The notes: generated by a model from the sequence alone, not told the origin. A DNA stretch of 40,897 bases from Armatimonadota bacterium (GCA_016190935.1 JACPPP010000110.1:1-40897); one strand, 5' to 3'; counted from the stretch's first letter, positions 6,806-40,776 are shown. Program-made: numbers and translations.

Positions 6806-8191
6806 TCATCTATCACTGGGCATCCTTTCGTCGTATGCAGTCCTGGTCTCGCCAAGAACCGAGAGCAAGGAGTGCAGGCCACCTGTCTGCATCCGCACGT
6901 CAAGGCCGTCTTCGTTTACTGATATGCTCTCGACCAGGGCACCCACGATCATTCGCTGTTCAGCGGGGTAAAGCTCGTTCCAGATGGGATCGAACTGCTG
7001 GAGAGCATCGGTTACTTCCCATCGGGTAACGGCTGCCGAGTCGAGATCACAGGATGCGAGATATGTCTGAGCTATCATCTCCGGCGACTTGATGATCGAG
7101 CGGATCTGGTCTACCACAGCCTTCTCGATATCACCGGCGGGCAGAAGCCTCACTGGGCATGAGGTATAGCCGTTCTTGCCTGCCTTAACGCACAGGTAGT
7201 ACCGGTACGTCCGACCGCCCTTCCGGGTGTACGTGCTCGTCATGGCACACTCACAGTGTCCGCAGCGAATCACCCCTTTGAGGAGTGACGGCACCTTCTC
7301 ATGGGCAACCTGCTCTCTTGGCGGATTCGACTTCAGCATCGTCTGCACTCTGTCCCAGAGCTTGCGCGAGACTATGGCTTTATGCTCGCCTGGGTAGACT
7401 TTTTCCTTGTGTGCTATCTCGCCGACGTATGTCCGATTGTTCAGCAGTCGGTAGATATGCGATGCGTTCCAAGGCTTCCCCGGCCGAGTCGCGCCTTTGC
7501 GGGTGGTCCACGACTTGGTGGTTATTCCGAGTCCGTTCAGTTCCTTCGCGATTCCCAGTCCTGACCCGGTCTCTGCATGCCGCCTGAATATCCGGAGGAC
7601 GGTCTTTGCCTCCTCTTCGTTCACGATTAGCTTGTGGGTCAGCGGATCGGGATCGTACCCCAAGAGCGGTGTGCCGCCGGTATACTTACCTTTCTTCTTT
7701 GCGCCAGCGATCTTGTCGCGCACCCGTTCGGCGATGATGGCTCTCTCGAACTCGGCAAAGCTCATCAGAATGTTCAGCGTGAGTTTCCCAATGGCAGTTG
7801 TTGTCGAGAAGTTCTGGGTGATGCTCACAAAGGAGACGTCACGAGCCTCGAATAGCTCCATTAACTTCGCAAAGTCGAGCAGGGAGCGCGAGAGCCTGTC
7901 TACTTTGTATGTAACAACCACATCTATCTTGCTGGATCGAATGTCGTCGAGCATTCGCTGGAGGGCGGGACGGTCGGCGTTAGCGCCGGTGAAACCGCCA
8001 TCCGAGTAGACATCAGACAAGAGTGTCCAGCCCTCATGTCGCTGGCTCGCTACATATGCCTCACATGCCTCACGTTGGGCATCAAGGCTGTCGAACTCCA
8101 TGTCGAGGCCGTCTTCGGTGGATTTCCTGCAGTACACGGCGCACCGAAGCGTCTGCTGCGCAGTGGCAGGGGCTGTTGGAGCAGTCATCAT
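6806..8191 (-). CDS. Large serine recombinase (phage integrase)
   Basis: A 461-aa site-specific recombinase expected to catalyse attP x attB integration. The N-terminal resolvase domain (about 14-160) has the catalytic YCRKS motif with Ser24, plus YKVDRLSRS and the E-helix region. A recombinase domain with the typical YDPDP and SHIYRLLNNRTYVGE segments follows. A zinc-ribbon (CGHC...C...C, about 317-350) and a coiled-coil-poor C-terminus complete it. The start overlaps DUF2924 by four bases (ATGA) and the end is one base from the HTH gene, so all three are one translation unit. It is the integrase nearest the host junction and is therefore the likely integrase of this prophage. Confidence 0.93.
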   Translation of the reverse strand: MMTAPTAPATAQQTLRCAVYCRKSTEDGLDMEFDSLDAQREACEAYVASQRHEGWTLLSDVYSDGGFTGANADRPALQRMLDDIRSSKIDVVVTYKVDRLSRSLLDFAKLMELFEARDVSFVSITQNFSTTTAIGKLTLNILMSFAEFERAIIAERVRDKIAGAKKKGKYTGGTPLLGYDPDPLTHKLIVNEEEAKTVLRIFRRHAETGSGLGIAKELNGLGITTKSWTTRKGATRPGKPWNASHIYRLLNNRTYVGEIAHKEKVYPGEHKAIVSRKLWDRVQTMLKSNPPREQVAHEKVPSLLKGVIRCGHCECAMTSTYTRKGGRTYRYYLCVKAGKNGYTSCPVRLLPAGDIEKAVVDQIRSIIKSPEMIAQTYLASCDLDSAAVTRWEVTDALQQFDPIWNELYPAEQRMIVGALVESISVNEDGLDVRMQTGGLHSLLSVLGETRTAYDERMPSDR

Positions 8192-8658: not shown

Positions 8659-8752
8659 GATACCTCCTCGATAACCGTTCCTCGTGACCATTCATCACTC
8701 ACGTCGGCAACAAAAGCAAGTTTTCAAGAACAGAGACTGCTCATTCCAGGCG

Positions 8753-24898: not shown

Positions 24899-26458
24899 TT
24901 GAATGTGCAGGGAAATGCTGAGGAGAAACGGTTGGGTCGGATAACGTCGGAAGAAGAGAGGCTTGGAATGTCGCTCAGGGACCCTGTCCTGTGGGGCCAG
25001 GGATACTTGTGTAACCGGGACGGCTCTGCTCGCACATACTGGTCGCACCAGGTGGAGGACCTGCAGTGCGAGGACCGGAACATCATCCACCTTGACGGCC
25101 GCGACTCCGGCAAGTCCATATCGCTCACTACTGACGCGCTGCACTTCGCCTTCACCACTCGCGGTGGCCAGGGACTCGTCGCTGCTCCGCACCAGGGACA
25201 CCTCGACACGCTCATTGAGGAGATAGAGTTCCAGATCGATTCCAATCCCGAGCTGACGAGAAGTATCGCCGTCACGAAGTACGGCAAGCCAAAGATATAT
25301 CGCAAGCCTTACTTCCGGCTGGAGTTCACGAATGGCGCGGTCCTCTATTTCCGGCCTGCCGGTGCCTACGGCGACGCGTTCCGGTCACTGCACGTCGAGC
25401 GGGTGTGGGTCGACGAGGGCGCGTGGCTCACCGAGAAGGCGTGGAGGGCGCTTCGGCAGTGCTTGAAAGCTGGAGGGACGCTGCGCATATACTCCACTCC
25501 TAATGGGCTCAGGGACACGACATACTACCGTCTCACCAGCTCGAACCAGTTCAGTGTGTTCCGCTGGCCGTCTTGGCTGAATCCGGACTGGAGCGATGAG
25601 CGCGAGCGGGAACTGCTGGAGTTCTACGGGGGCCGAGACACAGCCGGCTGGCAGCACGAGGTCGCAGGCGAACACGGCAAGCCCTCATACGGTGCGTTCA
25701 ACGTGGAGTACTTGAACCTCTGCAGGCAGGAGGTCCTGGAGTATCGCAGGATTGCGATCACTGGCGAGGACTTGAGTTCGTGCGATACAGAGGAGGAATC
25801 CTACGACCGGCTTGAGATGCTGCTCAACCTGATGCCGCAGACTGGTGTGTTCTGGATAGGCGGCGACCTGGGTTACACCAACGACCCGACTGAGATCGTC
25901 GTGTTCCGGGAGACCGATCTGGGCGAGCGGTCAGTGCTCACACTGGTTGTGCGCATTCACATGGAGCACGTATCTTATCCGCACATCGCTCAGGTCATAT
26001 CGCTCCTGGAGCGTTACTATGCGCCAGTCGGCGTAGGCATTGACAACGGGGGTAACGGTCTCGCGGTCGTCCAAGAGCTTCTAACGCTCGACAAGTATCG
26101 CCCCCTGCAGTTTGAGGCCAGGCTCCGTGGCTACGACTTCGGCGGGGTGACTACTCTGGCTGTCCGGGATGGTCGAGAGGTTCGTAAGCGCACCAAGGAA
26201 CTCATGACCACTCTCATCAACGGCGCGCTGCAGAGGCGTCAAATGATCCTGCCTGCGGACGACTCGGAAATCGAGGACCAGTTCACGACGCACACTTACA
26301 CGCTCTCAAACGGCAACATCATCTATTCCAAGGGCAACGACCACATCATCGACGCGGTCCGCTGTGCGATGCTGGCCCACGAGCAGGCGACCTTGGATAC
26401 GGTGAGCGAGGAGACGGTCTCGGTGATACCAGTGCTGACGAACCCGATTTTCATCTGA
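24899..26458 (+). CDS. Terminase large subunit
   Basis: 519 aa from TTG 24899; ATG 24968 (496 aa, starting MSLRDPVLWGQGY) is perhaps the true start, with GAGAGG before it. This is the DNA-packaging motor, with an ATPase N-terminus: Walker A-type GRDSGKS and Walker B VWVDEGAW. The RNase H-like nuclease half has GGDLGYTNDPTEI, GIDNGGNG and DHIIDAVRC, supplying the acidic metal ligands. It cuts concatemers and pumps DNA into the procapsid through the portal. The start lies just across from the divergent core-binding gene. Confidence 0.93.
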   Translation: MNVQGNAEEKRLGRITSEEERLGMSLRDPVLWGQGYLCNRDGSARTYWSHQVEDLQCEDRNIIHLDGRDSGKSISLTTDALHFAFTTRGGQGLVAAPHQGHLDTLIEEIEFQIDSNPELTRSIAVTKYGKPKIYRKPYFRLEFTNGAVLYFRPAGAYGDAFRSLHVERVWVDEGAWLTEKAWRALRQCLKAGGTLRIYSTPNGLRDTTYYRLTSSNQFSVFRWPSWLNPDWSDERERELLEFYGGRDTAGWQHEVAGEHGKPSYGAFNVEYLNLCRQEVLEYRRIAITGEDLSSCDTEEESYDRLEMLLNLMPQTGVFWIGGDLGYTNDPTEIVVFRETDLGERSVLTLVVRIHMEHVSYPHIAQVISLLERYYAPVGVGIDNGGNGLAVVQELLTLDKYRPLQFEARLRGYDFGGVTTLAVRDGREVRKRTKELMTTLINGALQRRQMILPADDSEIEDQFTTHTYTLSNGNIIYSKGNDHIIDAVRCAMLAHEQATLDTVSEETVSVIPVLTNPIFI

Positions 26459-26579: not shown

Positions 26580-28100
26580 TTGAACAACACCAACTCGGAA
26601 GCTCAAGAGTCCATGGAACAGAACGCTGCATACGGAATTGTGATCCCCGCGCTGGCGGCCGCCGCCGCGCTTGACTCATCCACGTTCAGCAGCATCAATG
26701 CCAACGACGCGATCCCAGCGAATTGGGATGACCGGGCCAGGAAAGCCTGGGAGTATTACGTCGAGGAGCCGCTGGTGAAGAACTGCGTGAACTCCTGGCG
26801 CACATTCGCCGTGGGAGACGAGATCAAGATCACGAGCGACGATGACGCAGTCAAGAGCGAAGCCAATGAGCTTGCCGACCGCCTCGGTGTCTCCGAGTTC
26901 GTGAAAGACATGATCCTCCAGCTTCTGGTCAAGGGCGATGCTGTCGGGTTCAAACGCTACACCAAAAACGGCAAGGACATCGAGGAAGTCACCTGCGTCA
27001 ACCCGATCTCGGTCAAGGTGAAATACGCGCAGGGACAGCTCGTCGAAGTTCGGCAGTATCCTGAAGACAGTCCAACGGCCGGAGAGGGACTTGAGCTGCC
27101 GGTCGAACAGACGCTGCACCTGAAATGGGATGCTCCCGAGTTCTCGCCGCGCGGCAACTCGCTCGTGCTGCCTGCGTTTCAGTCCATCGAACTGCTCCGG
27201 GATTACCGGCGCGCCGAACAAGCCATAGCCAAACGCTGGGCTACGCCATTCCGGCTGCTCAAGGTCGGAGGCGCGTTCGGTCAGAAGATGGTGATGCCCG
27301 ACCAGAAGATGCTTGAGCAGGTCCGCGACATGATCAACAAGATGGACATGAAGAGCGGTCTGGTCGTGCCGTTCTACGTGACTGTCGAGACCCACGGCAC
27401 GGAAGGCCAGGTCCTCAACGTCGAGGACAAGGTCAAAGAGGTCAAGGAAGACATCGTCGTTGCGCTGGGGCTATCGCGTTCTCTTGTCACAGGCGACGGT
27501 CCCAACTTCGCAACAGCGTCGGTCAGCATGCAGAAGATGCTCATCATGATCCGGGAGATAAAGCACGCCGCGCGCACCATTCTCGAATGGATATACGACG
27601 ACTGGCGGGAGCTTGCCGGGCACGCGGGCAAGAGCATCCAGTTCCTCTTCAACGACCTCGACCCGACCGATGCGGTTGATTTCAAGAAGCTCCTCATAGA
27701 GCTATACGACCGCAAGCTGATAAGCCGCTCGTCCCTCCAGCTCAAGATGGACCTCGACCCGGATATCGAGGAGGCCAACCGGCAGAACGAATGCAAGTCC
27801 GTCGATCTGCTCGATGAGAAACAGGTCAAGCCCATCGTCGATATGGTCGTGGCCGGAATCATGAGTGTCGAGACCGCTCAAGAAATGCTTGGTCTTGACC
27901 CGGCGAAGAACCCGGCAGGTTCCAGGTCGGAGGCGGCGTGGGCAGGATTATTCAGTCACGGCGGTCATAGCGGAGAGGTCTGTGACTCCTGCGCATACTT
28001 CGGTGAAGATGACAATCGCTGCAGAGTTACTCAGGCTGAGGTGGCCTTCGATTCCCCGGCGTGCCGGTTCCTCCAGCTCAGGAAGGTCGAGAGCAAGTGA
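26580..28100 (+). CDS. Phage portal protein with Cys-rich C-terminus
   Basis: A 506-aa head-tail connector of the portal family, starting at TTG 26580 behind AGGAGG. The central stretch (PEFSPRGNSLVLPAFQSIEL...RRAEQAIAKRWATPFRLLKVG) and the later VALGLSRSLVTGDGPNFA are typical. The C-terminus is unusual: HGGHSGEVCDSCAYF...CRVTQAEVAFDSPACRFLQL has four cysteines and two histidines in a zinc-knuckle-like arrangement. The 121 bp upstream carry the octamer GCGCGAAC twice (26534 and 26545). The stop overlaps the next start by four bases. Confidence 0.9.
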   Translation: MNNTNSEAQESMEQNAAYGIVIPALAAAAALDSSTFSSINANDAIPANWDDRARKAWEYYVEEPLVKNCVNSWRTFAVGDEIKITSDDDAVKSEANELADRLGVSEFVKDMILQLLVKGDAVGFKRYTKNGKDIEEVTCVNPISVKVKYAQGQLVEVRQYPEDSPTAGEGLELPVEQTLHLKWDAPEFSPRGNSLVLPAFQSIELLRDYRRAEQAIAKRWATPFRLLKVGGAFGQKMVMPDQKMLEQVRDMINKMDMKSGLVVPFYVTVETHGTEGQVLNVEDKVKEVKEDIVVALGLSRSLVTGDGPNFATASVSMQKMLIMIREIKHAARTILEWIYDDWRELAGHAGKSIQFLFNDLDPTDAVDFKKLLIELYDRKLISRSSLQLKMDLDPDIEEANRQNECKSVDLLDEKQVKPIVDMVVAGIMSVETAQEMLGLDPAKNPAGSRSEAAWAGLFSHGGHSGEVCDSCAYFGEDDNRCRVTQAEVAFDSPACRFLQLRKVESK

Positions 28101-31100
28101 ATCTGTCTTCCCCGATGATGTGCGCTGTCGCGGACCTCGACTGGCAGGCCAGGGCGATACGCGAGGCGACTGACAAGAGCCTCATGGCGCGCGACATGTA
28201 TGCCGAACAGGTGGCGTTCCAGCTTACGCAGTCGCTCAAGACCGCGCAGGAGCACGTCCACAAAGCGCTTCTGGGCTACAAGGATGTCGGCTCGCTGCCT
28301 GAGAACAAGCTCGCGGCGGTCAATGGTCTTGAGAAGCTGGACGCGCAAATCCAAGAAGCGATGCGCGCCCTTCGCAAGGGCCAGTCCCTGATGTTCCGCA
28401 AGGCAAGCCGCGCGTCCTTCCGCTCCGGCGTCTATCGCGGGATAGAAGAGTTCGCGACTGCACAAATGCCATTCTACAAAGACCTTACACCAGACGAGAT
28501 CGACAAGGTCACGACGTCGGTGTTCACGCTCATCGACACTGACGCCCTGGACTTCATGGCCAACTACAACCTGGTCCTGGTGGGCGATGTGCACCAGGAG
28601 CTTGCGAGCGGCATCAAACGCACCATCCTTTCCGGGATCACCACAGGCAAGAACGCCCGCGACATCGTTCGAGACATGGGCAGCGTCATCGAGGACAAGG
28701 AGTCCTTCCGGCACGCCGGTACAAAGGTGTTCTCCAAAGCTCAGTACCGGATCGAGATGATAGCGCGCACAGAGGTGCTGCGCGCGCACAACCAGGGGCG
28801 AATCAAGTTCCACCAGCAGGTGGGGGTCACGAAGCTCGAATGGATGACCATGGAGGACGAGCGTGTGTGCCCGGTCTGCGGTGGGCTTGATGGCAAGGTG
28901 TTCGACACCGACCATTTCCCCAGTCAGCCCGCGCATCCAAACTGCCGATGCACGAGTGTTGTCGCGTGGCCGTTAGTCATCTGCGGCGGGGAACTCGGGG
29001 CGACGGCCGCTGTGGGGCAGAGCGCATGCATACTGCCCCCGCAGGCAATACACGACCAGGCAAAGCAGCAGGCCGAGGAAGAGAAGAAACTCAAGGGCGC
29101 ATTTGGGTCCGGTCAGATGGCGGATCTGTCGGGGCTTACGGTGAAGCAGCTCCAGACTCTCGCCAAGGGCAACGGCATTGGGGTTGCCCGCACCAAGACC
29201 GACTTCATCAAGCTCCTCGACGCGGCAGAGCCGGGGATCGGACATGCCGACCTCTCCGGCGCGGCGCTGCAGGCAAAGATCAAGCAATTCAATATCGCGG
29301 CGCTGCGTAGCAAAGACGACCTCACGAAACTGCTCGCCGAGAAGCAGGCCGTCATCAAGCAGGCAAAGGCCCTGGAGGAAGCCGCGAAGAGCGCAGCGCC
29401 TCAGACCGATCTCTCCAGTCTTACCGTGACTCAGCTCAAGGACATGGCCAAGCAGCACGGCGTGTCTCTGAACCTCACGAAGTCCGATGTCATCGAGATG
29501 CTGGACGCGCTTGAGCCGCACATAGACCATTACAACTACTCCGGCAAGACCCTGATCGCCGCCAAGCAGAAGTACGGGATCCCGCCACTCAAGAACAAGC
29601 AGCAGCTCGTGAAAGCCCTGGAAAAAGCGGCGGGCAAGCAGATGGCTGATCAGGTCAAGCAGCAGGCTCTGGACGTGGCGAAGACCGAGGCTCTGAAGAA
29701 AGCCGAGCTTGCCATAAAGGATGCCACAGCGCAGGTGGTGATGCCGTCGTCTCCCGCGCAGTATTCATCGTTCCTCGATTCGGTGAAAGCCGTCGAAGGT
29801 GAACTTGCTAAGGACTCAGGGCTGCCCGCATCGGTTCTTCAAGAGCACGCAAAGGAAGTCGCCGTGAAGAAGCTGGCGTTCCAGCAACAGGTTGCGGCGA
29901 TGAAGTCCGGAGAACTCAAAGACCTAGCGAAGCAGACCAAGGTCACGCACTGGCAGTGGGCCACGAAAGATGAACTGACAACTCTGTTCAGCGAAACCGA
30001 TCCGGGCAAGATTGCGGCGGCCAAAGCAGGCATCGAAGCAAAGCACGCGAAGTGGGCCGAAAAGCACTTGGGGAAGTCCGGCAAGCCCGTGGCGAAGCTG
30101 CCGAGCCCGCCGCCGACTCATCACGCCGTTGAGCACATAACACCGGCGGCCCCCGCATTCACCAAGAAAGGCTCGGAGTTTGACGCTGCCGATGATGCAT
30201 GGAAGTCTGAGGGCAAGCCCGAGAAGTTCAAGTATGAAGGCAAGGCCAAAGTCGGCGGGGCTCATGAGAAGGAGTTCTGGATCGACGAGAACGGCGACAA
30301 GTGGCTATTCAAGCCGGTCGGTAAAGGTAGTGACGACTTCATAGCCCACGGCGAGGAGGCCGCTTACAGGTTGGGCAGGCTCATCGACCCTGACGCCGTG
30401 GAAGTCAGGACAATCCGTATGAACGGTCGCACCGGCTCGATCCAGAAATGGCGCAATGATCTGGCAGCGAAATATGACTTCTCCAGTTTTGATGTAGCCG
30501 ATCTCTCTGCAGATGAGATAGCGCAGGTCCAGCGCGAGCACGTCCTTGACTGGCTTATCTCAAACCATGACGGCCACGCCAAGCAGTTCCTCCGGGCGAA
30601 GAACGGCAAGGTCTACGGCATCGACAAGGGCCAGCTATTCAAGTTCCTGGGTTCGGACAAGCTCTCCGTAGACTATCACCCCAATGGGGTCTGCGGAGAA
30701 AGTGAACCTTTCTACAACACTCTCTTCCGCGCGGCAAAGCAGGGTAAGGTGACGGTCGATCCGTCGACCACTCTGCGCTACATTCGCGAAGTGGAGCGCA
30801 TATCGGACGACGACTACCTCGGACTGCTGCGGCCTTACGTCGAAGGCAAGTTCGGAAGCGACGAGGCCGGTAAGCGGGCGTTCTACGAACTGGCTCTGGC
30901 GCGGAAGCACAACCTGCGCCGGGACTTCGAAGAGTTCTATTCGGATGTCCTCGGAAAGAAGAGGTTCGCATTCGACGACGCGGCAGATATCCCGGCCAAA
31001 GGTCGGATCGGGAAGGCAGAAGAGAAGATCATTGAAGATGCCCGCGTTCTCGGCTGGCAGGGCAAGGCGCTTCCGATAGACGAGGATGACATAGAGGACC

Positions 31101-32674
31101 AGAACGCGCTCATCTTCACCGAGACGGCGAAAGGCCAGCAGCGCACGGTCATCAAGCTCAAGGTCAGGCCGGAGGCAGAGGCAAAGATACTGGCCAAGCT
31201 CCGCAAGGCCACAAAGCAGGTCAGCAAGGTCGGGGAGCGCCTGCCGGAAGACGACTTCGCCGCTGATATCCTCGATGCCGCGAAGAGCGTGAATCACCAC
31301 GCGGGTGATGGCAAGTACAACCAGGCCAAGATTGATAAGGCCGCCGGACACATCAAGGCTCTGAGGCAGCTTGCGAAATCCGATGACCCCGACATCCGTG
31401 AGATGGCCGAGACCTACATCGACTGGGTGGACAGAGTCCAGCAGGCCGCGATTCAAGGCAAGTCTATACCTGAGCGCTTCGAGGGTTATCTGAAGAAGGT
31501 CGTCACCAAGGCCAAGAAGACCGATTCGGACTTCACGGTTCGTAAGACAAAGGTGCTGCTCGAAAAGCGTAGCGTCAGCAAGGGTGACTTATCTGTCGAA
31601 AGCGATGCCGCCGATCTGGACTCCATGTTCGGCGGACGCCACCTATCCGATGGCGAGCAGTATGAGATAGACTTCGGTGACGGCGTCCGCGCGGTCTACC
31701 GCCCGTGGTCATCGAAGAACCTGTATGCGCATTCCGGGGAGTTCGAGATGGTTGTTCCCGACCGGCCCGATGCAAAGAGCCTGGACAGGGCGCTGGAGCG
31801 CATGGAGAAGATAGGGCTGAAGGCTAACGTTGCCACCCCCGAGGATGCGGAGATCCTCTATCTCCACAAGCAGGCATATCTGACAAAGGCCGACAAGTCC
31901 CCGGAATACACGCAGATGGTCTCGTCCCTTGACCAGCGCAACGCGTCCAAGACCGAGCGTGTGCAAAGCATGCGCGCGTTCTGGGAGAAGCGGCTCGGGG
32001 TTTCGGATATCACGAAGACGCCCGGTTATGACCCGGTCGGTGAGTATCAGCTCGGGTTCAAGGACCAGAAGATCACGGGCGGCTACCGCCACCAGTATCG
32101 GTTCGATATCTCTGATGCGGATATGGAGCGCGATATGGCAGGCTACAGCCTACACCACAGCCTGACGAACAGCTCCAGCATGAGCGGGTTCCTCGATGCG
32201 GCTCTGGAGAACAACGGCACCATGATAAGCACGGTCGAGAAGCTCAGGGTCGGGGTGCAGCCGCGCGGCATGTCGCCGGAATCGGACATGAGAAGCGGCG
32301 GCGCGTCTTATGTGTTTACACGAATCAAGAAGTCCCCACTCTCCGGCGCTTCCGGTGAGAACGGGCTCTACTTCAAGAAGCGACTTCTGCGGCGCATGGA
32401 TGCTATTAGCTACAGTCACGACGCCTTTGGCAAGGTTACCGAAGACTATGTGCCCACGCACCGGGGCAGCGATCCCAAGACCTGGAAGACCTATGCGCGC
32501 AACTCAAGCAACGAGACTATCCTCAAACACTCCGTGACGCTGCTTGATAACCTGGAAGCGATAGTGGTGGGAAGCGAGTCCGAGCGGACCAAGGTGCTCG
32601 CGATATTCAAGAAGCACGGCATATCCAAGCTGACCGACGGCCGCAAGGTCGAGGAAATCGTTCTGGTGAGGTGA
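28097..32674 (+). CDS. Giant MuF-type head protein with SAP-like repeats, HipA-like kinase region and C-terminal toxin-like domain
   Basis: 1525 aa from GTG 28097, in the GTGA overlap with portal; an ATG at 28061 lies inside the portal. Residues to about 290 are a phage head-morphogenesis (SPP1 gp7/Mu F) domain ending in CPVCGGLDGKVF...HPNCRC. Three helical repeats resembling SAP/Rho-N modules follow (LSGLTVKQLQTLAK near 343, LSSLTVTQLKDMAK near 438, GELKDLAK near 604). From about 715 to 850 there is a HipA-like kinase region: the ATP-site Lys in KWLFKP (734), the loop DWLISNHDGHAKQF (Asp kept, the usual KN replaced by KQ) and YGIDKGQ. The last about 200 residues (SGGASYVFTR...SNETILKH) resemble an ADP-ribosyltransferase-like layout; this is tentative. 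MuF proteins can carry toxin domains into cells. Confidence 0.75.
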   Translation: MNLSSPMMCAVADLDWQARAIREATDKSLMARDMYAEQVAFQLTQSLKTAQEHVHKALLGYKDVGSLPENKLAAVNGLEKLDAQIQEAMRALRKGQSLMFRKASRASFRSGVYRGIEEFATAQMPFYKDLTPDEIDKVTTSVFTLIDTDALDFMANYNLVLVGDVHQELASGIKRTILSGITTGKNARDIVRDMGSVIEDKESFRHAGTKVFSKAQYRIEMIARTEVLRAHNQGRIKFHQQVGVTKLEWMTMEDERVCPVCGGLDGKVFDTDHFPSQPAHPNCRCTSVVAWPLVICGGELGATAAVGQSACILPPQAIHDQAKQQAEEEKKLKGAFGSGQMADLSGLTVKQLQTLAKGNGIGVARTKTDFIKLLDAAEPGIGHADLSGAALQAKIKQFNIAALRSKDDLTKLLAEKQAVIKQAKALEEAAKSAAPQTDLSSLTVTQLKDMAKQHGVSLNLTKSDVIEMLDALEPHIDHYNYSGKTLIAAKQKYGIPPLKNKQQLVKALEKAAGKQMADQVKQQALDVAKTEALKKAELAIKDATAQVVMPSSPAQYSSFLDSVKAVEGELAKDSGLPASVLQEHAKEVAVKKLAFQQQVAAMKSGELKDLAKQTKVTHWQWATKDELTTLFSETDPGKIAAAKAGIEAKHAKWAEKHLGKSGKPVAKLPSPPPTHHAVEHITPAAPAFTKKGSEFDAADDAWKSEGKPEKFKYEGKAKVGGAHEKEFWIDENGDKWLFKPVGKGSDDFIAHGEEAAYRLGRLIDPDAVEVRTIRMNGRTGSIQKWRNDLAAKYDFSSFDVADLSADEIAQVQREHVLDWLISNHDGHAKQFLRAKNGKVYGIDKGQLFKFLGSDKLSVDYHPNGVCGESEPFYNTLFRAAKQGKVTVDPSTTLRYIREVERISDDDYLGLLRPYVEGKFGSDEAGKRAFYELALARKHNLRRDFEEFYSDVLGKKRFAFDDAADIPAKGRIGKAEEKIIEDARVLGWQGKALPIDEDDIEDQNALIFTETAKGQQRTVIKLKVRPEAEAKILAKLRKATKQVSKVGERLPEDDFAADILDAAKSVNHHAGDGKYNQAKIDKAAGHIKALRQLAKSDDPDIREMAETYIDWVDRVQQAAIQGKSIPERFEGYLKKVVTKAKKTDSDFTVRKTKVLLEKRSVSKGDLSVESDAADLDSMFGGRHLSDGEQYEIDFGDGVRAVYRPWSSKNLYAHSGEFEMVVPDRPDAKSLDRALERMEKIGLKANVATPEDAEILYLHKQAYLTKADKSPEYTQMVSSLDQRNASKTERVQSMRAFWEKRLGVSDITKTPGYDPVGEYQLGFKDQKITGGYRHQYRFDISDADMERDMAGYSLHHSLTNSSSMSGFLDAALENNGTMISTVEKLRVGVQPRGMSPESDMRSGGASYVFTRIKKSPLSGASGENGLYFKKRLLRRMDAISYSHDAFGKVTEDYVPTHRGSDPKTWKTYARNSSNETILKHSVTLLDNLEAIVVGSESERTKVLAIFKKHGISKLTDGRKVEEIVLVR

Positions 32675-32676
32675 GT

Positions 32677-33147
32677 ATGAAAGAGTTCATAGCAAGCGAA
32701 AAGGCGAGACTGCAAGCCCTGTTTGACGAGTTCAACCGCGACGGGTCGATCATGGTAATGCGCGAGGGGCGGGATACGCCGCTGTCGTTGGGGCTTGTCG
32801 ACAGCTACACGGTGACCCGGTTAGCGCCGATATTCGATGCCGCGGGCAATGTTACGAAGACAGACTTCTGGGTCATGTTCAAGTCGGTTGGCTATGACAA
32901 CGGCTACCAGTATGCGCACACCATCAAGGTCGTTGGATGGGGCAGCGAAGACAGTTACGAGCTTGACCTCACCGATGATCGTGGCCGCCGCTACCACATC
33001 GAACTGATCATGGACATAACGGAACACGACTATGTTGTCGACTGGCGCGCGTGGCAGAGCTACAAAACCGCAAATGCCGCCGAGTTCGAGATCATCGACG
33101 CCCAGCTTCTCGACGAGCATACGGCGATTGCGGAGGAGTGGCAATGA
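32677..33147 (+). CDS. Unknown 156-aa protein behind the MuF fusion, possible immunity protein
   Basis: The start is taken at ATG 32677, since the GTG at 32671 overlaps the MuF stop codon. The product is acidic, compact and beta-rich by its alternation, with no transmembrane segment. I recognise no family. It directly follows the toxin-like C-terminus of the MuF fusion and is co-translated with the next small gene. By analogy with polymorphic toxins, it may be a cognate immunity or chaperone protein. That is inference from position only. Confidence 0.6.
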   Translation: MKEFIASEKARLQALFDEFNRDGSIMVMREGRDTPLSLGLVDSYTVTRLAPIFDAAGNVTKTDFWVMFKSVGYDNGYQYAHTIKVVGWGSEDSYELDLTDDRGRRYHIELIMDITEHDYVVDWRAWQSYKTANAAEFEIIDAQLLDEHTAIAEEWQ

Positions 33148-33485
33148 GGCTTCGATACATGATTGAACACGCGCTTCGGGATCGGGACATGAACCCGCGC
33201 TATGAACCCATCGGCGTTTGGGTTCAGGGTTCCGGCCCAGGGCTGGATATCGTGATGGAATACCTGCCGGGCAATGAGGACGCCCAAGAGGAAGCGGACT
33301 GGGTCATCAACCGCTTGGTGGAGAACGATATCAGGTCCCTGCCGGGTGACTTCCTGGAGTATCACCGGTCCACGATGTCCCCGTATCGCGGCATGCGCGG
33401 AGAGATAGTGGAGACCGAGGAGTATGCGACGGCGGAGGAGTGCGCCGCACGTGTGCTTTCGGGTCTACCAAGACCTCCTACTTAG
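33144..33485 (+). CDS. Unknown 113-aa protein, second small gene behind MuF
   Basis: ATG 33144 overlaps the preceding stop by four bases; a longer frame from 33051 is rejected. It is acidic with a mixed alpha/beta look (ALRDRDMNPRYEPIGVWVQG...EADWVINRLVENDI). No family is recognised. Together with the 156-aa gene it forms a two-gene tail of the MuF transcription unit. Its stop overlaps the end of the convergent AbiEii gene by eight bases, so the insertion of that cassette appears precise. Confidence 0.6.
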   Translation: MRLRYMIEHALRDRDMNPRYEPIGVWVQGSGPGLDIVMEYLPGNEDAQEEADWVINRLVENDIRSLPGDFLEYHRSTMSPYRGMRGEIVETEEYATAEECAARVLSGLPRPPT

Positions 33486-34446
33486 TTTTGTGCTGCCTGA
33501 CATTCAGCGCCTTCCACAATATCCCAGGGTGGATGCTTATCCGTTCCTGCATCTCATGGTCGGCGGTAAGCAGGTCCGGTCGCACATCGCCGTGATCCAG
33601 AATGAGGTCGAGGAATTCTGTCTCGTTGCTCTGAAAGGGAAGGACAGCGCTCAAACCCGCGCGGCACTCGTCGACGAGGCTTTGTGCCCACGTTCTTCGA
33701 TCCGCCACATGCGATAGGGCATCGCTGCGAAGCACCGGTACTAACTGGTTCTCCAAGTCGCCCAGATCGAAACCGACATCATCACTCTTCACAGTGCGCC
33801 AATCCTTCCGGTTGATTGCGCCGTAGACGACGAAGGCCAGTCGCAGCTTGTTGGCATCCAACAAGCCGCATTGAAGAAGGCGGTGTGAGTCGTAAAGGTC
33901 TCTCGCCGCTCGTCGAGACAACAGCGCCGCGAACTTGCCTGCCGTGATCTCATGCACGTCCAGCATGGGTATGCCCGAAGCGGAGTAACTGCCTATTGGA
34001 AACGAGTCCCGGAGCGTTACAGGCCACAAGGGAACGCGGAGCATGAAGTTCAGGTCAAGCTGCAGGATCCCAGTCGGCGTCACCGCGCTCTCATACTGCA
34101 GCCGGAACTTCCCACCAGCATGTTCCGAAGGACTCCTGGTGATGACATAACCTTCGCGTCCGCATATCGCGGCAATAGCTCGTTCAAGTAAAGGTCTATC
34201 CTCTTCCATCGACGCACGGTCTTGGGAACCAACATAGTTCAGGTCGATATCGACTGAGAGGCGAGGAACCTGCAGCAGGAAGAGATTGAGCGCAGTTCCG
34301 CCTTTCAATGCCAGCTTCCCCTTGAGTTGGGGATGTGAGTTCAGCATCTCCAGCAAGGAAAGCAGATGGATAGCTTTCTCTAGTATCTCCGGCCTGAACC
34401 CCGTGGACTCGGACTCAGCAATCAAGCGATCTCTCGAAATCCTCAT
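33478..34446 (-). CDS. AbiEii-type nucleotidyltransferase toxin
   Basis: A 322-aa protein of the AbiEii/MNT family. The nucleotidyltransferase signature KGGTALNLF (48-56) and the metal-binding D-x-D, Asp66 and Asp68 in RLSVDIDLN, are intact, as is the ARDLYDSHRL helix. Such enzymes transfer nucleotides to tRNA 3' ends and stop growth, aborting infection by other phages. The gene overlaps its antitoxin by four bases (ATGA). It sits on the opposite strand within the head-gene cluster, a typical place for a phage-borne anti-competitor cassette. Confidence 0.9.
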   Translation of the reverse strand: MRISRDRLIAESESTGFRPEILEKAIHLLSLLEMLNSHPQLKGKLALKGGTALNLFLLQVPRLSVDIDLNYVGSQDRASMEEDRPLLERAIAAICGREGYVITRSPSEHAGGKFRLQYESAVTPTGILQLDLNFMLRVPLWPVTLRDSFPIGSYSASGIPMLDVHEITAGKFAALLSRRAARDLYDSHRLLQCGLLDANKLRLAFVVYGAINRKDWRTVKSDDVGFDLGDLENQLVPVLRSDALSHVADRRTWAQSLVDECRAGLSAVLPFQSNETEFLDLILDHGDVRPDLLTADHEMQERISIHPGILWKALNVRQHKTK

Positions 34447-35237
34447 TGCTCGTCCCAGTGCCTTTCGACTATGAAGTCCGGCACAACCAGGTTCCAGTCC
34501 TGGAATAACTTACTGTTGCCCTTGTGTGACCGCTCAAGGTAATGAGGTGACTTCGGACACCGGGCCTTGAGGCGTTCCAGGTGAGAAGGATCGACCATCA
34601 ACTGCTCGCGATGCTGATCCAGGAAGAATCCAACCTTGGCAGCGGTAGTGGCATTGTCCAATAGCTCGACGTATTCAACTATCTTGTCCAGATGGTAATA
34701 CTCTACCATCTCCAGTGATCGCCAGACTTCCTCCCAGCCGCCGGAGAGTTCCGGTCTCTGCAACATGTCTACCATGGTCCGCTCCAGGCTTGTCACGCGC
34801 AAGGTTTCACCATGAGATTCGGCATTGTCCACGGCAAATGCCTCCTGGCCTGTGGTAAGCAGAGAGCGAGGAAACAACACTGCCTTGAACGTTTGTCCCT
34901 CGAAGCCGAAGGAATGAACGCGTGAACGAGAGCAGCAGACGTAGTCGTTGCGCAGTGTGTAACCCTTGCCGTGGAATTGAAGCGCTGTGTGATATGCGAG
35001 AACTGCGTCAGGAGCCATTTTCGTGCATATCAGATAAGGGTCGGCGACTACAGGTATACCGGGAGGCGCGCTGAGGTAAAGCCCTTTTCGCACTTGCTTG
35101 ACCCGGCCGGTGTGAAGATAGTACTTGAGCAAGGCTCTCCGTCCGGTCGTCTTGCCTGGACGTTCGCGTGAGTAGAATTCCTCGAAGTCCCGCGAATCGA
35201 ATACCGTCTTTCTGTTCAGAAACATCTGAGCCTTCAT
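34443..35237 (-). CDS. AbiEi-type antitoxin
   Basis: A 264-aa protein of the AbiEi family. An N-terminal winged helix (about 13-60; LLKYYLHTGRVKQVRKGLYL) precedes the C-terminal domain that counters AbiEii. The family represses its own promoter and neutralises the toxin without direct binding (type IV). GAGGAGG precedes the ATG. A 12-bp palindrome lies in the promoter, in line with autoregulation. The pair with AbiEii is complete. Confidence 0.88.
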   Translation of the reverse strand: MKAQMFLNRKTVFDSRDFEEFYSRERPGKTTGRRALLKYYLHTGRVKQVRKGLYLSAPPGIPVVADPYLICTKMAPDAVLAYHTALQFHGKGYTLRNDYVCCSRSRVHSFGFEGQTFKAVLFPRSLLTTGQEAFAVDNAESHGETLRVTSLERTMVDMLQRPELSGGWEEVWRSLEMVEYYHLDKIVEYVELLDNATTAAKVGFFLDQHREQLMVDPSHLERLKARCPKSPHYLERSHKGNSKLFQDWNLVVPDFIVERHWDEQ

Positions 35238-35588: not shown

Positions 35589-35632
35589 GAGAGGTTCCCT
35601 GCCAATGGGAACTGCATGTGTCGGAGTGATTG

Positions 35633-38600
35633 ATGCAGCTTTTCGCCACGGACAATGACCGGCTTGTCTTTCTTCTGGAGACGGACGCCTCGCGTCACCT
35701 GGAGCGGTTGCTCGCTCAGGCGGCAGAGCTCGTCACCGAGGAACTGCCGGAAGACGAGCGTCCGAAATACATAACCAACTACATCGGCTCCAAGCAGAAG
35801 CTCATCGACTGGATCTGGAAGCACACTCCCGAAGGGGTGGATTCGGTCATAGACGCGTTCTCCGGCTCCGGCGTCGTGGCCTACATGTACAAGACCAAGG
35901 GCCTGCGGGTGCTGGCCAACGACCGGCTTCGTTACTCCTACCACGCTGCCCGCGCAATCGTCGAGAACTCAAGCGTCCGGATAAGCGAGGACGAGCTTGC
36001 CGCTCTGCTTGCGGATAATCCAAAGGCTGGGACCTTTGTCCGAGACAACTTCAAAGGGATATTCTTCGCAAGCGGAGTTCACGGTGTCATCGACCAGATC
36101 CGGGCCAGCGCCGACAAGCTGGAGGGCTACAAGAAGGACATCGCGCTCTTCGCGCTCGGTAAGACTTGCATGTCCGGCAAGGGCGGCTTCGGCCACTTCT
36201 CATCCTCGACCGATTACGGAAAGCGCCAGGACACGCCAGAGGAGTTTCGGCAGCGCTTCGCCGATAACATCGCGCGCATCAATGCGCTCATATTCGACAA
36301 CGGCAAGGAGTGCAAGGCATCGAACAAGGACATCAACGAAGTCCTGTCGGAAGCCAAGGTCGACCTTGCCTACTTCGATCCGCCCTATGCCACCGAGTTC
36401 TCCACAACCAACTACGAGAAGAGCTACCACTTCGTCGAAGGTCTCATGACCTACTGGGACGGTCTCACGCTCGTTGAGGATTCCAAGACTCACCACTACG
36501 AGACCGACCACAAGACGGTGACCAAGGCCAACGCGCAGGAGTTCTTCTCGACGTTTCTCACGAACGCGAAGCATATCCCGAACTGGCTCATCTCTTACCG
36601 CGACCATGCCTACCCAAACGAAGGCGAGATGAAGCAGATCATCTCGGCAAGCGGCATGTCGAGCCGGATGCAGTCTCACCAGCACAGGTATCACATCTCA
36701 TCGAAGCATTCCGAGAACTCAGTCGCGATGGAGCATCTCTTCGTGTGCTCTCGCTCAAAGGAGATGAAGAAGGCCGCGAGCCTCTGTCCTGTCTGTTCTC
36801 AGCAGGCAATGGAGGCCGAGGCCATTTGGGACGAGACGGAAAACGAAATCCGCTACCGCGTCCGCGATCCAGAACAGTTCGACCCCGACAGTTTCAGGCG
36901 GAAACCACTCGACGGCGTGAACGGCGTTGCGATCATCGTTGGCAGGCTGAAGAAGGAGAGCGTTCCACAGGGGCGTGACCCGCAGGCGATGGTCCTGCAG
37001 GCATACCGGTTCGCCAAGAAGACGGACAGCAACCCCGAAGGCTGGACAACCGAGAAAGCCAAGGACTGGATAAAGCAGCATGAGCCTGAGGCGTCCAGCG
37101 CAGAGATTCGGATCGAAGAGAACATGCAGGCGCTGGCCCACGCGCCGCTGTCGGACGACCTTGACCTGCTCTGCTGCCAGGCCGGAATGGACCCGGTCAA
37201 GGTGACGGGCTACATGGGCAACAAGTTCGTGATGCTCGGCTGGATAGAGCGGCAGGTCCCCAAGGACGCAAAGACCGTCGTTGACGCGTTCTCCGGCGGG
37301 GCGAATGTCGCCTACCATCTCAAGCGCAAAGGGATGAAGGTCATCGCAAATGACCTGCTGCTCTTCCCATATCATATCGCACGGGCGGTCGTTGAGAACT
37401 CCCGCGAAGTCTTGACTGACGAGGATATAGAGAGGATTCTTTCTCCCAACCCCAACGCGGGCACGTTCATCGTCGACAACTTCAGCGGTTACTACTACAC
37501 CAAGCGGGTGCTCTCCTGGCTTGACCAGGTGTGGGCTAACATCCAGAAGCTTTCCGGCTACAAGAAAGACCTAGCGCTGGGGGCGCTCGGAAACACGGTC
37601 AAGGCTAAGTCTCTCTACGGTCAGTTCCATCGCTCGAAGATCAACCTCAAAGGCGAACTCGGCACGGAAGCCGACGCGGAGATGGAAGCGGATGCTGGTG
37701 GGTTCAAGGAAAGCCAACTCACCAGCATTCCCATCTCCAGCATGGTGGAGAGCTTCAAGCGGTACGCGAACCAGCTTAACCGGCTGGTCTTCGACAACGG
37801 CCAGGAGTGCAAGGCTTTCCATGGCGACGCGGTAGAGGCGGTGCGGAAGTACGGCGCGGACGTGCTGTATCTCGATCCACCCTACATAACGGAGTTCTCG
37901 AACAACGACTACGAGTATTCGTTGCACTTTGTCGAGGGCTTGATGAACCGCTGGGCGGACAAAGAGCTTCTCGACGACAACCGGCGCAGCTACAAGTCGC
38001 GGACTCACTTCGACCGCGAGAGCATCCGCGCTCTTATCGAGAACCTGGCTTCGGAGGCGCGGGGCAAGTACAAGACTGTGATCATGTCCTACCGGGACCA
38101 CGCGTTCCCGACCGAAAAGGAAATCCGCGACATCTTCGCTGAGCGTTTCGGGCAGGTTCGGGTCAAGGGCATGGATGTCGAGTATGGCATCGTCCTCGGC
38201 AAGGGGGGTGAGGGCAAGAACGGGCGCGAGCTTCTATTCGTGGCGTCCAGTTCCAGGCAGGCTCCCAGGTCAATCGCTTCGGCTGGTGTCTCAAACTGCC
38301 ACACTGCTATCCCCGTGGAAGTGAGTCTGAACAACAAGGACGGACTCTCGTCCGAGGCGATTGACCTCAACCCCAACGCTGGCGATCCACAATTCAGCTT
38401 CATCATGTGTCGCGCTGGCACGAACAAGAACGGCGACCACTTCACCCCGGACGAACTCGCCGCACGCTACACCACGGCCATAAACAGGAAGATCGACCTC
38501 AAACACTCCCAGGAACTCACGGACATCGTGGGCGGCATAGTCGCGGCCGAGTTTGTCGAGGACGAGACCGGCGGGCGCGTCGAGTGCGTAGGCGAGCTTT

Positions 38601-39523
38601 ATGCGGCGGAAGCCCCAACCGCCGCGCTCGCCTACAAGCTCATGAAGAAGGGCATCATCTCCCAGGTCTCGATGGAGTGTGACTACGAGTCCGGAGAGTG
38701 CTCGATTTGCGGGAAGACTGTGAGCAACAAGAACGACTACTGCGTGCATCTGAGAAAGTCCAAGGGCTCGGAGTATCAGGGCAAGCCGGTATTCGAGATA
38801 CTGCACGGCGTCACATTCACCGGCCTTGGGCTTCTGGACCGCAAAGGAGCCGACGATAACGCGCGGATAACTCAGGTCGCCTCGGACAAGACGGGGCAGG
38901 CAGAAGATACAAACTCAGGAGGCACCTCATTGGAAGACGTTAAGAACGAACACGAGACCGACGAGCAGCGTGAAGAAGCTGCAAAGAAGAAAGACGCTCC
39001 CGGCGGCGGGGCCGCTCCTCCGGTCGACGACAAGACCCGGGTGAAGGAGCTTGAAGCGGAGAACAAGGACCTCAAGAACCAGGTTCTGGAGCTTCAGAAG
39101 CAGGTCCAGGAACTCGAGGCGACAAGCAAAGCCGCCGCGAACAAGGCGCGTGCGCAGAAGCTTCTGAGGAAGCTGGAGAAGGCGGGAATGTCCTTTGCCT
39201 CTGACGAGGACAAGGACCAAGAACTGAACCGTCTTGCCGGACTTTCGGACGATGCGTTCGCCGCGACCGAGGCTGCCTATGACAAGGCCATCCAGTCAAA
39301 GTCCGAGTGTCCGAATGCCGGGAAGCAGGACGGGGACAAGGATGCCGGTGATAGGGAGAATTCTGCTTCCGCTTCGACGGATCGACAGATGCGCTCGCAC
39401 GCGGACGTGCGACCCGCCGATGTCGACGACAAGAAGCTCTCCCTTGAGGACAAGCTTCGCGACGGATTCATGACTGCCTACCGTGAGCGAGTCGGTCTCG
39501 CTGGCGCGGGCAAGAGCAACTAA
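35633..39523 (+). CDS. Fusion of two D12-type adenine methyltransferase domains, XkdF-like domain, prohead protease and scaffold
   Basis: 1296 aa from ATG 35633 (GGAG 6 nt upstream; TTG 35630 is an alternative). Domain 1 (about 45-375) is a Dam/D12-class N6-adenine methyltransferase: NYIGSKQKL, DAFSGSG (75-81) and DPPY near 250. Domain 2 (about 520-860) repeats this: GYMGNK, DAFSGGANVAY near 552 and DPPY near 748; its AdoMet motif is altered. Between them lie a CPVC motif and an XkdF-like domain (VRDPEQFDPDSFRRKPL, then IIVGRLKKES). From about 915 follows a capsid protease with His near 959 (LKHSQ), Ser near 1015 (SQVSMECDY) and a CSIC zinc knuckle. The tail is coiled-coil scaffold (about 1137-1170). 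All motifs look intact; a fusion of methylase and maturation protease is exceptional. Confidence 0.85.
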   Translation: MQLFATDNDRLVFLLETDASRHLERLLAQAAELVTEELPEDERPKYITNYIGSKQKLIDWIWKHTPEGVDSVIDAFSGSGVVAYMYKTKGLRVLANDRLRYSYHAARAIVENSSVRISEDELAALLADNPKAGTFVRDNFKGIFFASGVHGVIDQIRASADKLEGYKKDIALFALGKTCMSGKGGFGHFSSSTDYGKRQDTPEEFRQRFADNIARINALIFDNGKECKASNKDINEVLSEAKVDLAYFDPPYATEFSTTNYEKSYHFVEGLMTYWDGLTLVEDSKTHHYETDHKTVTKANAQEFFSTFLTNAKHIPNWLISYRDHAYPNEGEMKQIISASGMSSRMQSHQHRYHISSKHSENSVAMEHLFVCSRSKEMKKAASLCPVCSQQAMEAEAIWDETENEIRYRVRDPEQFDPDSFRRKPLDGVNGVAIIVGRLKKESVPQGRDPQAMVLQAYRFAKKTDSNPEGWTTEKAKDWIKQHEPEASSAEIRIEENMQALAHAPLSDDLDLLCCQAGMDPVKVTGYMGNKFVMLGWIERQVPKDAKTVVDAFSGGANVAYHLKRKGMKVIANDLLLFPYHIARAVVENSREVLTDEDIERILSPNPNAGTFIVDNFSGYYYTKRVLSWLDQVWANIQKLSGYKKDLALGALGNTVKAKSLYGQFHRSKINLKGELGTEADAEMEADAGGFKESQLTSIPISSMVESFKRYANQLNRLVFDNGQECKAFHGDAVEAVRKYGADVLYLDPPYITEFSNNDYEYSLHFVEGLMNRWADKELLDDNRRSYKSRTHFDRESIRALIENLASEARGKYKTVIMSYRDHAFPTEKEIRDIFAERFGQVRVKGMDVEYGIVLGKGGEGKNGRELLFVASSSRQAPRSIASAGVSNCHTAIPVEVSLNNKDGLSSEAIDLNPNAGDPQFSFIMCRAGTNKNGDHFTPDELAARYTTAINRKIDLKHSQELTDIVGGIVAAEFVEDETGGRVECVGELYAAEAPTAALAYKLMKKGIISQVSMECDYESGECSICGKTVSNKNDYCVHLRKSKGSEYQGKPVFEILHGVTFTGLGLLDRKGADDNARITQVASDKTGQAEDTNSGGTSLEDVKNEHETDEQREEAAKKKDAPGGGAAPPVDDKTRVKELEAENKDLKNQVLELQKQVQELEATSKAAANKARAQKLLRKLEKAGMSFASDEDKDQELNRLAGLSDDAFAATEAAYDKAIQSKSECPNAGKQDGDKDAGDRENSASASTDRQMRSHADVRPADVDDKKLSLEDKLRDGFMTAYRERVGLAGAGKSN
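38930..39523 (+). CDS. Internal in-frame start: separate scaffolding protein
   Basis: Inside the fusion gene, AGGAGG (38917-38922) is followed 7 nt later by TTG 38930, in the same frame at residue 1100. This would yield a 197-aa protein comprising only the acidic linker, the coiled coil (VKELEAENKDLKNQVLELQK) and the C-terminal capsid-binding tail. The arrangement is that of lambda C/Nu3, where the scaffold is translated from an internal start of the protease gene. The strong ribosome site in mid-gene is direct evidence; use of a TTG start fits TTG starts at the portal and capsid genes. Confidence 0.65.
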   Translation: MEDVKNEHETDEQREEAAKKKDAPGGGAAPPVDDKTRVKELEAENKDLKNQVLELQKQVQELEATSKAAANKARAQKLLRKLEKAGMSFASDEDKDQELNRLAGLSDDAFAATEAAYDKAIQSKSECPNAGKQDGDKDAGDRENSASASTDRQMRSHADVRPADVDDKKLSLEDKLRDGFMTAYRERVGLAGAGKSN

Positions 39524-39912: not shown

Positions 39913-40776
39913 TTGGAAGCAACCCAGCTCAACATTCACAGCCAAGAATACATGGAGACCATGGCCCGGCTCATGACCGAAGCTCTGGAATCCCCAGAGG
40001 GCATGCGCGCGCTCGCGGCGGCAATCGCCGATCCAATCGAGCAGGAGATCAAGCGCAAGGAGATAACCTCGCTTCTCCTCACGCAGCACACTCTGCCCAA
40101 GGGTGAGCGGCCGATCTACCAGAAGAAGCCGAAGGTCAAGGCTTACTGGATCAGCACGGAGGGTGAGGCGCGAGAGCAGGAACTCGGTCAGGACGAGGTC
40201 GAGTTCCCAACTAACCGAATCCACTCCACACCGATGGTGGACGTATCGGTGCTGAAGAACGGCAACATCGGCACCCTGATGGACATCCAGACATCTTCGG
40301 CGGACGAGATTCGCAAGGAGATCGACAAGAGAACACTCACGGTCCTCTCTGCGGCCGTGCCGGCCGCGAACACTATCGAGGTCACGGGCGGCAAGCTCAC
40401 CGACGATGCCTTGAACGAGGCCATCTCCATCATTGAGGACCTGGAACTCTCGGTCAAGTACATCGTGATGCGTGGCCGGCGGTTCAACGATATGCGCGAC
40501 TGGGATCTCGACCCGGAGACCCGGGCGGAACTCAGAACCAAAGGTGTCATCAAGAACTACGGCACCGGCGGCATTCTGCTTACCGCTTCCGCCAGCATGA
40601 CTGAGATTCTGTTGGTGCCGGACGATGAGATCGGCAAGATGCCGATTCGCGAATCACTCAAGACCGAGTCCATCGAGCAGAAGACCCGGTTCAAGACGGG
40701 CTGGCTCGTCTGGACGGAGCTTGGGCAGGGCGTCACCCGGCCCGAGATTCTCGCCAAGATCAGGATACTGCCGTAA
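39913..40776 (+). CDS. Major capsid protein, HK97-type
   Basis: A 287-aa protein starting at TTG 39913 behind GGGAGG. Position after scaffold and decoration genes and the layout (N-terminal helix; PTNRIHSTPMVDVSVLKNGNIG, then KRTLTVLSAAVPAANT, a long P-domain-like helix with TDDALNEAISIIED, and the C-terminal LLVPDDEIGKMPIRESLKTE with TGWLVWTELGQGV) fit HK97-fold capsid subunits of siphophages. An N-terminal helical delta-domain-like segment could be trimmed by the fused protease. Confidence 0.8.
   Translation: MEATQLNIHSQEYMETMARLMTEALESPEGMRALAAAIADPIEQEIKRKEITSLLLTQHTLPKGERPIYQKKPKVKAYWISTEGEAREQELGQDEVEFPTNRIHSTPMVDVSVLKNGNIGTLMDIQTSSADEIRKEIDKRTLTVLSAAVPAANTIEVTGGKLTDDALNEAISIIEDLELSVKYIVMRGRRFNDMRDWDLDPETRAELRTKGVIKNYGTGGILLTASASMTEILLVPDDEIGKMPIRESLKTESIEQKTRFKTGWLVWTELGQGVTRPEILAKIRILP

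What the first reader, a model, noticed from the sequence alone, without database searches (positions are those of the whole stretch)
28097..32674. MuF head protein carrying a HipA-like kinase region and toxin-like tail
A 1525-aa MuF protein contains three SAP-like repeats, a region with HipA-type signatures (KWLFKP; NHDGHAKQF; YGIDKGQ) and a C-terminal domain with an ART-like layout. MuF fusions are known as polymorphic toxins or injected effectors. The combination of a kinase and a second effector in one virion protein is unusual. The catalytic Asp is kept but the metal-binding Asn of HipA is Gln.
Basis: partly seen in the sequence, partly recalled or inferred. Interest (0 to 1): 0.85.

Follow-up and report, generated by a model that had tools for sequence, protein, structure and literature searches.

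The report
Phage head protein with kinase–ADP-ribosyltransferase pair
A temperate phage makes a head protein that is probably injected with its DNA and carries two enzyme-like domains, a kinase-like fold and a DarT-like ADP-ribosyltransferase; across many phages this kinase is almost never found without an ADP-ribosyltransferase, which suggests that the two work as one module.

Summary
The 1525-aa MuF protein is real (28097-32674). It lies in a prophage, between portal and capsid genes, and belongs to a large family (over 40 distinct full-length homologues). AlphaFold gives a confident protein-kinase fold at aa 705-959 (pLDDT 94.8; best solved match the HipA-type kinase CtkA). The C-terminus (pLDDT 90.8) holds a domain whose only credible structural matches are four DarT entries, with conserved H1354, R1384, Y1405 and E1473. 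New here: of 41 kinase-domain clusters with an intact 3' end, 38 carry a detectable ART (22 DarT-like, 16 ADPrib_exo_Tox-like); the others are one IS-truncated ART, one ART seen by eye, and one true loner. So the pair is a recurrent kinase–ART module, not an oddity. Most likely it is an injected MuF effector whose kinase-like domain primes or regulates the ART. Injection, activity, substrate and immunity are untested. It is a new variant of a known kind (MuF toxins, polyvalent proteins).

The parts
28097..32674 (+). MuF–HeH repeats–kinase-like–ART head protein, 1525 aa, GTG start, 4-nt overlaps with the portal gene and with the next gene
   Evidence: full-length homologues
28613..28954 (+). 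Phage_Mu_F (SPP1 gp7-like) domain, aa 173-286, with CPVC...NCRC
   Evidence: Pfam 7.6e-17, NCBIfam 8.7e-20
29123..29350 (+). tandem unit 1, two HeH/SAP-like motifs, aa 343-418
29408..29635 (+). tandem unit 2, two HeH/SAP-like motifs, aa 438-513
   Evidence: sub-threshold Rho_N 0.0022 and SAP 0.0028
29894..30004 (+). weaker fifth HeH/SAP-like motif, aa 600-636
   Evidence: 2 of 1000 shuffles reach its score against the first motif of unit 2
30239..30961 (+). kinase-like domain (KIN), aa 715-955; K739, E753, D825, Q830, D843, Q846
   Evidence: AlphaFold pLDDT 94.8, Foldseek kinase fold, conservation
31004..31966 (+). modules CT1/CT2, aa 970-1290 (alpha-beta unit, helical bundle, beta-rich unit); no known family
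   Evidence: AlphaFold; no Pfam match for the query
32069..32671 (+). DarT-like ADP-ribosyltransferase domain, aa 1325-1525; H1354, R1384, Y1405, E1473
   Evidence: AlphaFold, Foldseek DarT probability 0.99-1.00, conservation
32671..33147 (+). 158-aa downstream gene (ds158), candidate immunity or accessory protein
   Evidence: conserved directly downstream in 130 loci; pattern KIN-ART-ds158-ds112 in 142 loci
33144..33485 (+). 113-aa downstream gene (ds112), candidate immunity or accessory protein, 4-nt overlap with ds158
   Evidence: conserved in 140 loci
26580..28100 (+). portal protein
   Evidence: phrog_2739 1.6e-66
24899..26458 (+). terminase large subunit
   Evidence: phrog_2 9.2e-28
39913..40776 (+). 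major head protein
   Evidence: phrog_2522 2e-86
6806..8191 (-). large serine recombinase (phage integrase): temperate phage, next to host genes
   Evidence: phrog_95 1.3e-120, Resolvase 4e-42

Best explanation
This is a head-packaged, portal-associated MuF effector of a temperate phage. The N-terminal MuF domain docks it in the head, and the HeH/SAP repeats may bind DNA (inferred). The protein is probably ejected into the cell with the genome (inferred from MuF toxins and T4 Alt). There the C-terminal DarT-like ART uses NAD+ to ADP-ribosylate a host macromolecule, possibly nucleic acid. The kinase-like domain is not a separate second weapon but the ART's partner: it most likely primes the ART's substrate or controls the ART in cis. 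One or both small genes directly downstream probably protect the producing cell.
For: Shown: a kinase fold and a DarT-like fold with conserved active-site-like residues; purifying selection on both domains similar to the MuF domain; a head-gene position between portal and capsid, with a serine integrase and host flank. Coupling: 38 of 41 KIN clusters with an intact 3' end carry an ART by profile, 22 DarT-like and 16 exotoxin-type. Of the other three, Phrappuccino has an ART-like C-terminus by eye, L326 has an IS element inside the ART, and L175 is a true exception. Ten exotoxin-type C-termini checked separately all matched Pfam ADPrib_exo_Tox. Most of the KIN diversity came from scans with KIN patterns only. 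A KIN profile search of 291 genomes found KIN only in long open frames of 1305-1651 aa, never alone; five of the six, the query included, reach the DarT-like ART in the stretch read, and the sixth stretch is cut off before it. The reverse does not hold: phage Pan1 has the DarT-like ART without KIN. Literature: MuF-ART toxins with small immunity genes are known (PMC5576092; PMC11699363).
Against: Nothing here shows packaging, ejection or any activity. The DarT link is by fold only: profile-profile comparison with real DarT was not significant, and the TM-score to DarT is about 0.5. Clusters are not independent lineages. The priming-or-control role of the kinase rests on co-occurrence alone. One stand-alone kinase domain exists (L175).
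Confidence: 0.5

Rival explanations
1. Two independent effectors in one polyvalent protein: the kinase phosphorylates one host target (as HipA or the T7 kinase do) and the ART modifies another, with no functional link between them.
For: Polyvalent proteins often string unrelated enzymatic domains together, and kinases occur among them (PMC5512222). The active-site Lys and both Asp are invariant.
Against: With random stringing, the kinase should also turn up without an ART or with nucleases and peptidases; it did so in only one of 41 clusters.
Confidence: 0.25
2. Polymorphic toxin for competition between bacteria: lysogens release phage that poisons non-lysogens, and ds158/ds112 are immunity proteins. 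(This concerns the purpose and can be true together with the best explanation.)
For: Temperate phage, MuF toxin layout, small overlapping genes downstream conserved in 142 loci. Bxa and Apk2 precedents with two immunity proteins. The mycobacteriophage versions carry their own unrelated small downstream gene.
Against: The C-terminus is not polymorphic within the clade: the same ART is kept across 22 clusters. Small downstream genes may be structural. ds158 is conserved rather than diversified.
Confidence: 0.3
3. Self-directed DNA modification: the DarT-like ART marks the phage's own DNA in the head or on entry to evade restriction, alongside the tandem DNA methyltransferase fused to the prohead protease next door.
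For: DarT fold, putative DNA-binding HeH repeats, and a neighbouring head gene with two Dam-type methyltransferase domains.
Against: DarT modification blocks replication in known systems (established knowledge); no DarG-like reversal enzyme was detected among the head-module genes scanned.
Confidence: 0.12
4. Virion-structural role with dead enzyme-like domains.
For: The metal-binding Asn is Gln in most members; a few members lose H or Y of the ART.
Against: Invariant Lys/Asp/Asp and Glu under strong purifying selection. In a sublineage the kinase-ART part is a separate gene from MuF, so it is not needed for the MuF fold.
Confidence: 0.13

Closest known systems
MuF polymorphic toxins (Jamet 2017 PMC5576092; Bxa and Apk2 in PMC11699363; EFV toxin)
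   Same: MuF N-terminus, head-module position, temperate phage, C-terminal ART (in some members), small genes downstream
   Different: Extra kinase-like domain and HeH repeats; DarT-like rather than exotoxin-type ART; C-terminus constant within the clade
Phage polyvalent proteins (Iyer 2017 PMC5512222)
   Same: Large multidomain virion-associated protein with ART and kinase domains
   Different: Their kinase group is described as lacking the C-terminal subdomain; this one keeps a helical C-lobe
Mycobacterium phage capsid–ART fusions (prophiFSQJ01-1 gp54, McProf gp54, Onyinye gp16)
   Same: Same kinase-like domain (about 30-35% identity) followed by an ART
   Different: ART is ADPrib_exo_Tox (PF03496); the kinase domain is not annotated in those records
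Pseudanabaena phage Pan1 head morphogenesis protein
   Same: MuF plus the same C-terminal ART family (30% identity)
   Different: No kinase-like domain
DarT DNA ADP-ribosyltransferase
   Same: Fold; His, Arg and Glu at matching places in the order of secondary structure elements (inferred)
   Different: No Pfam DarT match, no significant profile match, no DarG partner detected nearby, fused to a virion protein
HipA / CtkA kinases
   Same: Best structural match by TM-score is CtkA; HipA_C weakly matched by 59 of 67 members
   Different: Below the Pfam cut-off, Gln for Asn at the metal site, no HipA N-terminal domain found; paired with an ART

Membership tests
Phage_Mu_F / SPP1 gp7 | profile match above curated cut-off | tested here: met
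   62.5 bits vs cut-off 29.6; TIGR01641 71.1 vs 39.65
MuF polymorphic toxins | MuF plus C-terminal toxin-type domain in the packaging/head module | tested here: met
MuF polymorphic toxins | encoded by a temperate phage | tested here: met
   serine integrase and host tRNA-synthetase genes on the same contig; relatives in bacterial chromosomes
MuF polymorphic toxins | small ORF directly downstream | tested here: met
   158-aa and 113-aa ORFs, conserved
MuF polymorphic toxins | C-terminal domain exchanged among relatives | tested here: inconclusive
   constant within the clade; different (DarT-like vs ADPrib_exo_Tox) between clades that share the kinase domain
MuF polymorphic toxins | toxicity and immunity | not testable with these tools
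   needs expression
HipA kinases | HipA_C profile above cut-off | tested here: not met
   21.5 bits for the domain alone, 16.1 for the whole protein, vs 30.5
HipA kinases | kinase fold with Lys and two catalytic/metal Asp | tested here: met
   K739, D825, D843 in 67 of 67; fold
HipA kinases | metal-binding Asn five residues after the catalytic Asp | tested here: not met
   Q830; N in only 16 of 67
DarT | DarT fold | tested here: met
   four DarT entries top the list, probability 0.99-1.00, TM-score by target length 0.47-0.52
DarT | sequence-profile relation to DarT (PF14487) | tested here: not met
   no Pfam match; hhalign probability 1.5%
DarT | DarG or NADAR partner | tested here: not met
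   none among the neighbours scanned
DarT | ADP-ribosylation of DNA bases | not testable with these tools
   needs biochemistry
Polyvalent-protein kinase group (Iyer 2017) | loss of the C-terminal kinase subdomain | tested here: not met
   six helices after the active site in the model

The most novel reading that the evidence does not exclude
The kinase-fold domain is a dedicated ART-activating, priming or restraining enzyme used by phages: a kinase–ART two-step module that has been joined to at least two unrelated ART families and is delivered in the virion. One form would be control in cis that keeps the ART silent until ejection, loosely comparable to the kinase-fold glutamylase SidJ acting on SidE-type ARTs (analogy from general knowledge, not tested).
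Probability: 0.3. Interest if true: 0.85.

Novelty: new variant of a known kind. Interest (0 to 1): 0.62.

Why it matters
MuF-borne ARTs are known, but none of the papers that could be searched describes this kinase-like domain, although it accompanies ARTs in phages of Desulfobacterota, mycobacteria and others. A near-obligate kinase–ART pairing across two unrelated ART families would mean that many phage ARTs need, or are controlled by, a kinase-fold partner, which point mutants can test directly. A DarT-like ART carried by virions would also turn a known anti-phage chemistry into a phage weapon.

Tried and rejected
PDB sequence searches with the full protein and both alignments gave nothing significant. 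Pfam on the C-terminus gave no credible family. Profile-profile ART vs DarT was not significant; the planned KptA control failed because no KptA seed was found, so that output line is a stale copy and is ignored. The idea that relatives L157 and L160-L167 lack a kinase was rejected: they carry a divergent version of the same domain (a type-B profile finds ordinary members at 4e-9 to 5e-6; the hhalign is contaminated by ordinary members and is not used). ds158 vs the small genes behind Pan1 and the type-B loci: co-linear but not significant. L030 looked like a kinase-less variant but is a degraded gene. Literature searches found no description of a kinase domain in MuF-ART fusions; subscription papers and preprints were not searchable.

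Full report
The gene. ORF 28097-32674 encodes 1525 aa with a GTG start overlapping the portal stop. The order is terminase small and large subunits, portal, this gene, two small genes (32671-33147 and 33144-33485), an AbiE-type toxin-antitoxin pair on the other strand, a large methyltransferase fusion, a scaffold/decoration-like protein and the major head protein. Left of it lie a replication module, a serine integrase and host genes for AspRS, HisRS and a transporter. The window is contig 46 of a 3.84-Mb draft genome. It is therefore the left part of a prophage in a bacterial contig, cut at the right end.

Family. Full-length homologues at 60-93% identity occur in viral contigs. Wider searches found 184 viral contigs with the kinase-like region and 84 with the C-terminus, and 37 bacterial contigs, mostly Desulfobacterota, including complete chromosomes of Desulfosarcina. 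The architecture MuF–HeH–KIN–CT1–CT2–ART is kept in most complete ORFs. In one sublineage MuF is a separate gene that overlaps the start of the HeH–KIN–ART frame.

Kinase-like domain. AlphaFold on 67 sequences gave pLDDT 94.8, pTM 0.92. Foldseek against the PDB found 579 matches at E<=0.001. The list is dominated by protein kinases, with the best query TM-score for Helicobacter CtkA (0.57) and about 0.50-0.53 for PI3-kinases. Pfam HipA_C is weakly matched by 59 of 67 members, PI3_PI4_kinase by 17 and Fam20C by 15. K739, D825, D843 and Q846 are invariant; the position of HipA's Asn is Q in 48, N in 16 and A in 3. It is a kinase fold near HipA and the PI-kinases, not a HipA member.

C-terminal domain. 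AlphaFold on 45 sequences gave pLDDT 90.8. The four top PDB matches are all DarT (E 0.008-0.019, probability 0.99-1.00, TM by target length 0.47-0.52), and the rest are noise. Viral models gave uncharacterised mimivirus, Yasminevirus and Bacillus phage CP-51 proteins. H1354, R1384, Y1405 and E1473, with invariant R1409, D1435, Y1439, D1442 and K1477, make an ART-like constellation. By order of secondary structure elements R1384 would correspond to DarT's catalytic Arg and E1473 to its catalytic Glu; this is inference, since no coordinates could be superposed. Profile comparison with 30 real DarT sequences (found) was not significant. The substrate is therefore open.

Selection. Across 13 full-length homologues, dN/dS in KIN is 0.04-0.15 and in ART mostly 0.02-0.3 where synonymous sites are not saturated, similar to MuF. 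Homologue L009 is nearly identical in KIN (pN 0.017) but about ten times more diverged in CT1-ART (pN 0.14-0.22), a sign of recombination at the KIN/CT1 boundary.

The pairing. KIN-containing proteins were clustered at 70% identity: 45 clusters, 41 with an intact 3' end. By profile, 22 carry the DarT-like ART, 16 an exotoxin-type ART and 3 neither. Of those 3, Phrappuccino gp195 ends in ART-like sequence by eye, L326 has a transposase gene where the ART breaks off, and L175 is a 469-aa frame that stops after the kinase. Ten exotoxin-type C-termini checked separately all matched Pfam PF03496, nine above the cut-off. The mycobacteriophage proteins annotated only as capsid-ART fusions have the same kinase. 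In 291 genomes of the window's phylum the kinase profile found only six long ORFs (1305-1651 aa); five, including the query, reach the DarT-like ART in the stretch read, and the sixth stretch is cut off before it. The converse fails: Pan1 has the DarT-like ART without the kinase. So the kinase seems to depend on an ART, but the ART does not depend on the kinase. A published survey reports ARTs in 14% of MuF toxins (PMC5576092), so the pairing is not the background rate. Clusters are related by descent, so no p-value is claimed.

Downstream genes. ds158 and ds112 follow the DarT-like KIN proteins in 142 loci and were not found with the exotoxin-type ones. The latter have their own small gene (McProf gp55 and Onyinye gp17 are homologous, 35%). 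This fits immunity genes that track the ART; a structural role is not excluded. Bxa, a MuF-ART toxin, has two adjacent immunity proteins (PMC11699363).

Working model. Shown: folds (predicted), conserved sites, head-module position, temperate context, pairing. Inferred from MuF toxins and T4 Alt: packaging and ejection. Inferred here: the ART is the business end, the kinase-like domain primes its target or controls it, the HeH repeats bind DNA, and the small genes protect the producer.

Noticed in passing
window 35630-39523 (+): 1297-aa head-module protein with two tandem D12-class DNA methyltransferase domains (DPPY at 250 and 749) followed by a region similar to an annotated capsid maturation protease (Gordonia phage Stormageddon gp13, 3e-4) and a coiled, scaffold-like tail: a methyltransferase–methyltransferase–protease fusion conserved in about 120 loci.
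   Followed up: partly
window 33478-35237 (-): AbiEii/AbiEi type IV toxin-antitoxin pair inserted between the MuF operon and the methyltransferase fusion; seen in only a few relatives (L028, L112).
   Followed up: partly
window 6806-8691 (-): Large serine recombinase with an adjoining DUF2924 gene at the left end of the prophage, next to host genes.
   Followed up: no
L157, L160-L165, L167: MuF proteins with the same ART and a divergent 'type B' kinase-like domain (NWDV...DNLL...IDTGG) in which a canonical Asp-Asn pair is kept in several members; weakly detected from the ordinary type.
   Followed up: partly
L099, L105, L320, L321: MuF is a separate gene with a short overlap into the HeH–kinase–ART frame, showing that the effector part is separable.
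   Followed up: partly
L175:4376-5782: The one kinase-like domain of this family without an ART, a 469-aa frame in what looks like a tail-gene region.
   Followed up: no
L323, L335, L326, L030: Copies broken by frameshifts, deletion or an IS element, so some prophages have lost the protein.
   Followed up: no
window 28097-32674: PHROG 6577 (1066 positions, 'unknown function') matches this protein at 1.5e-207, so the family is already clustered but unnamed.
   Followed up: no
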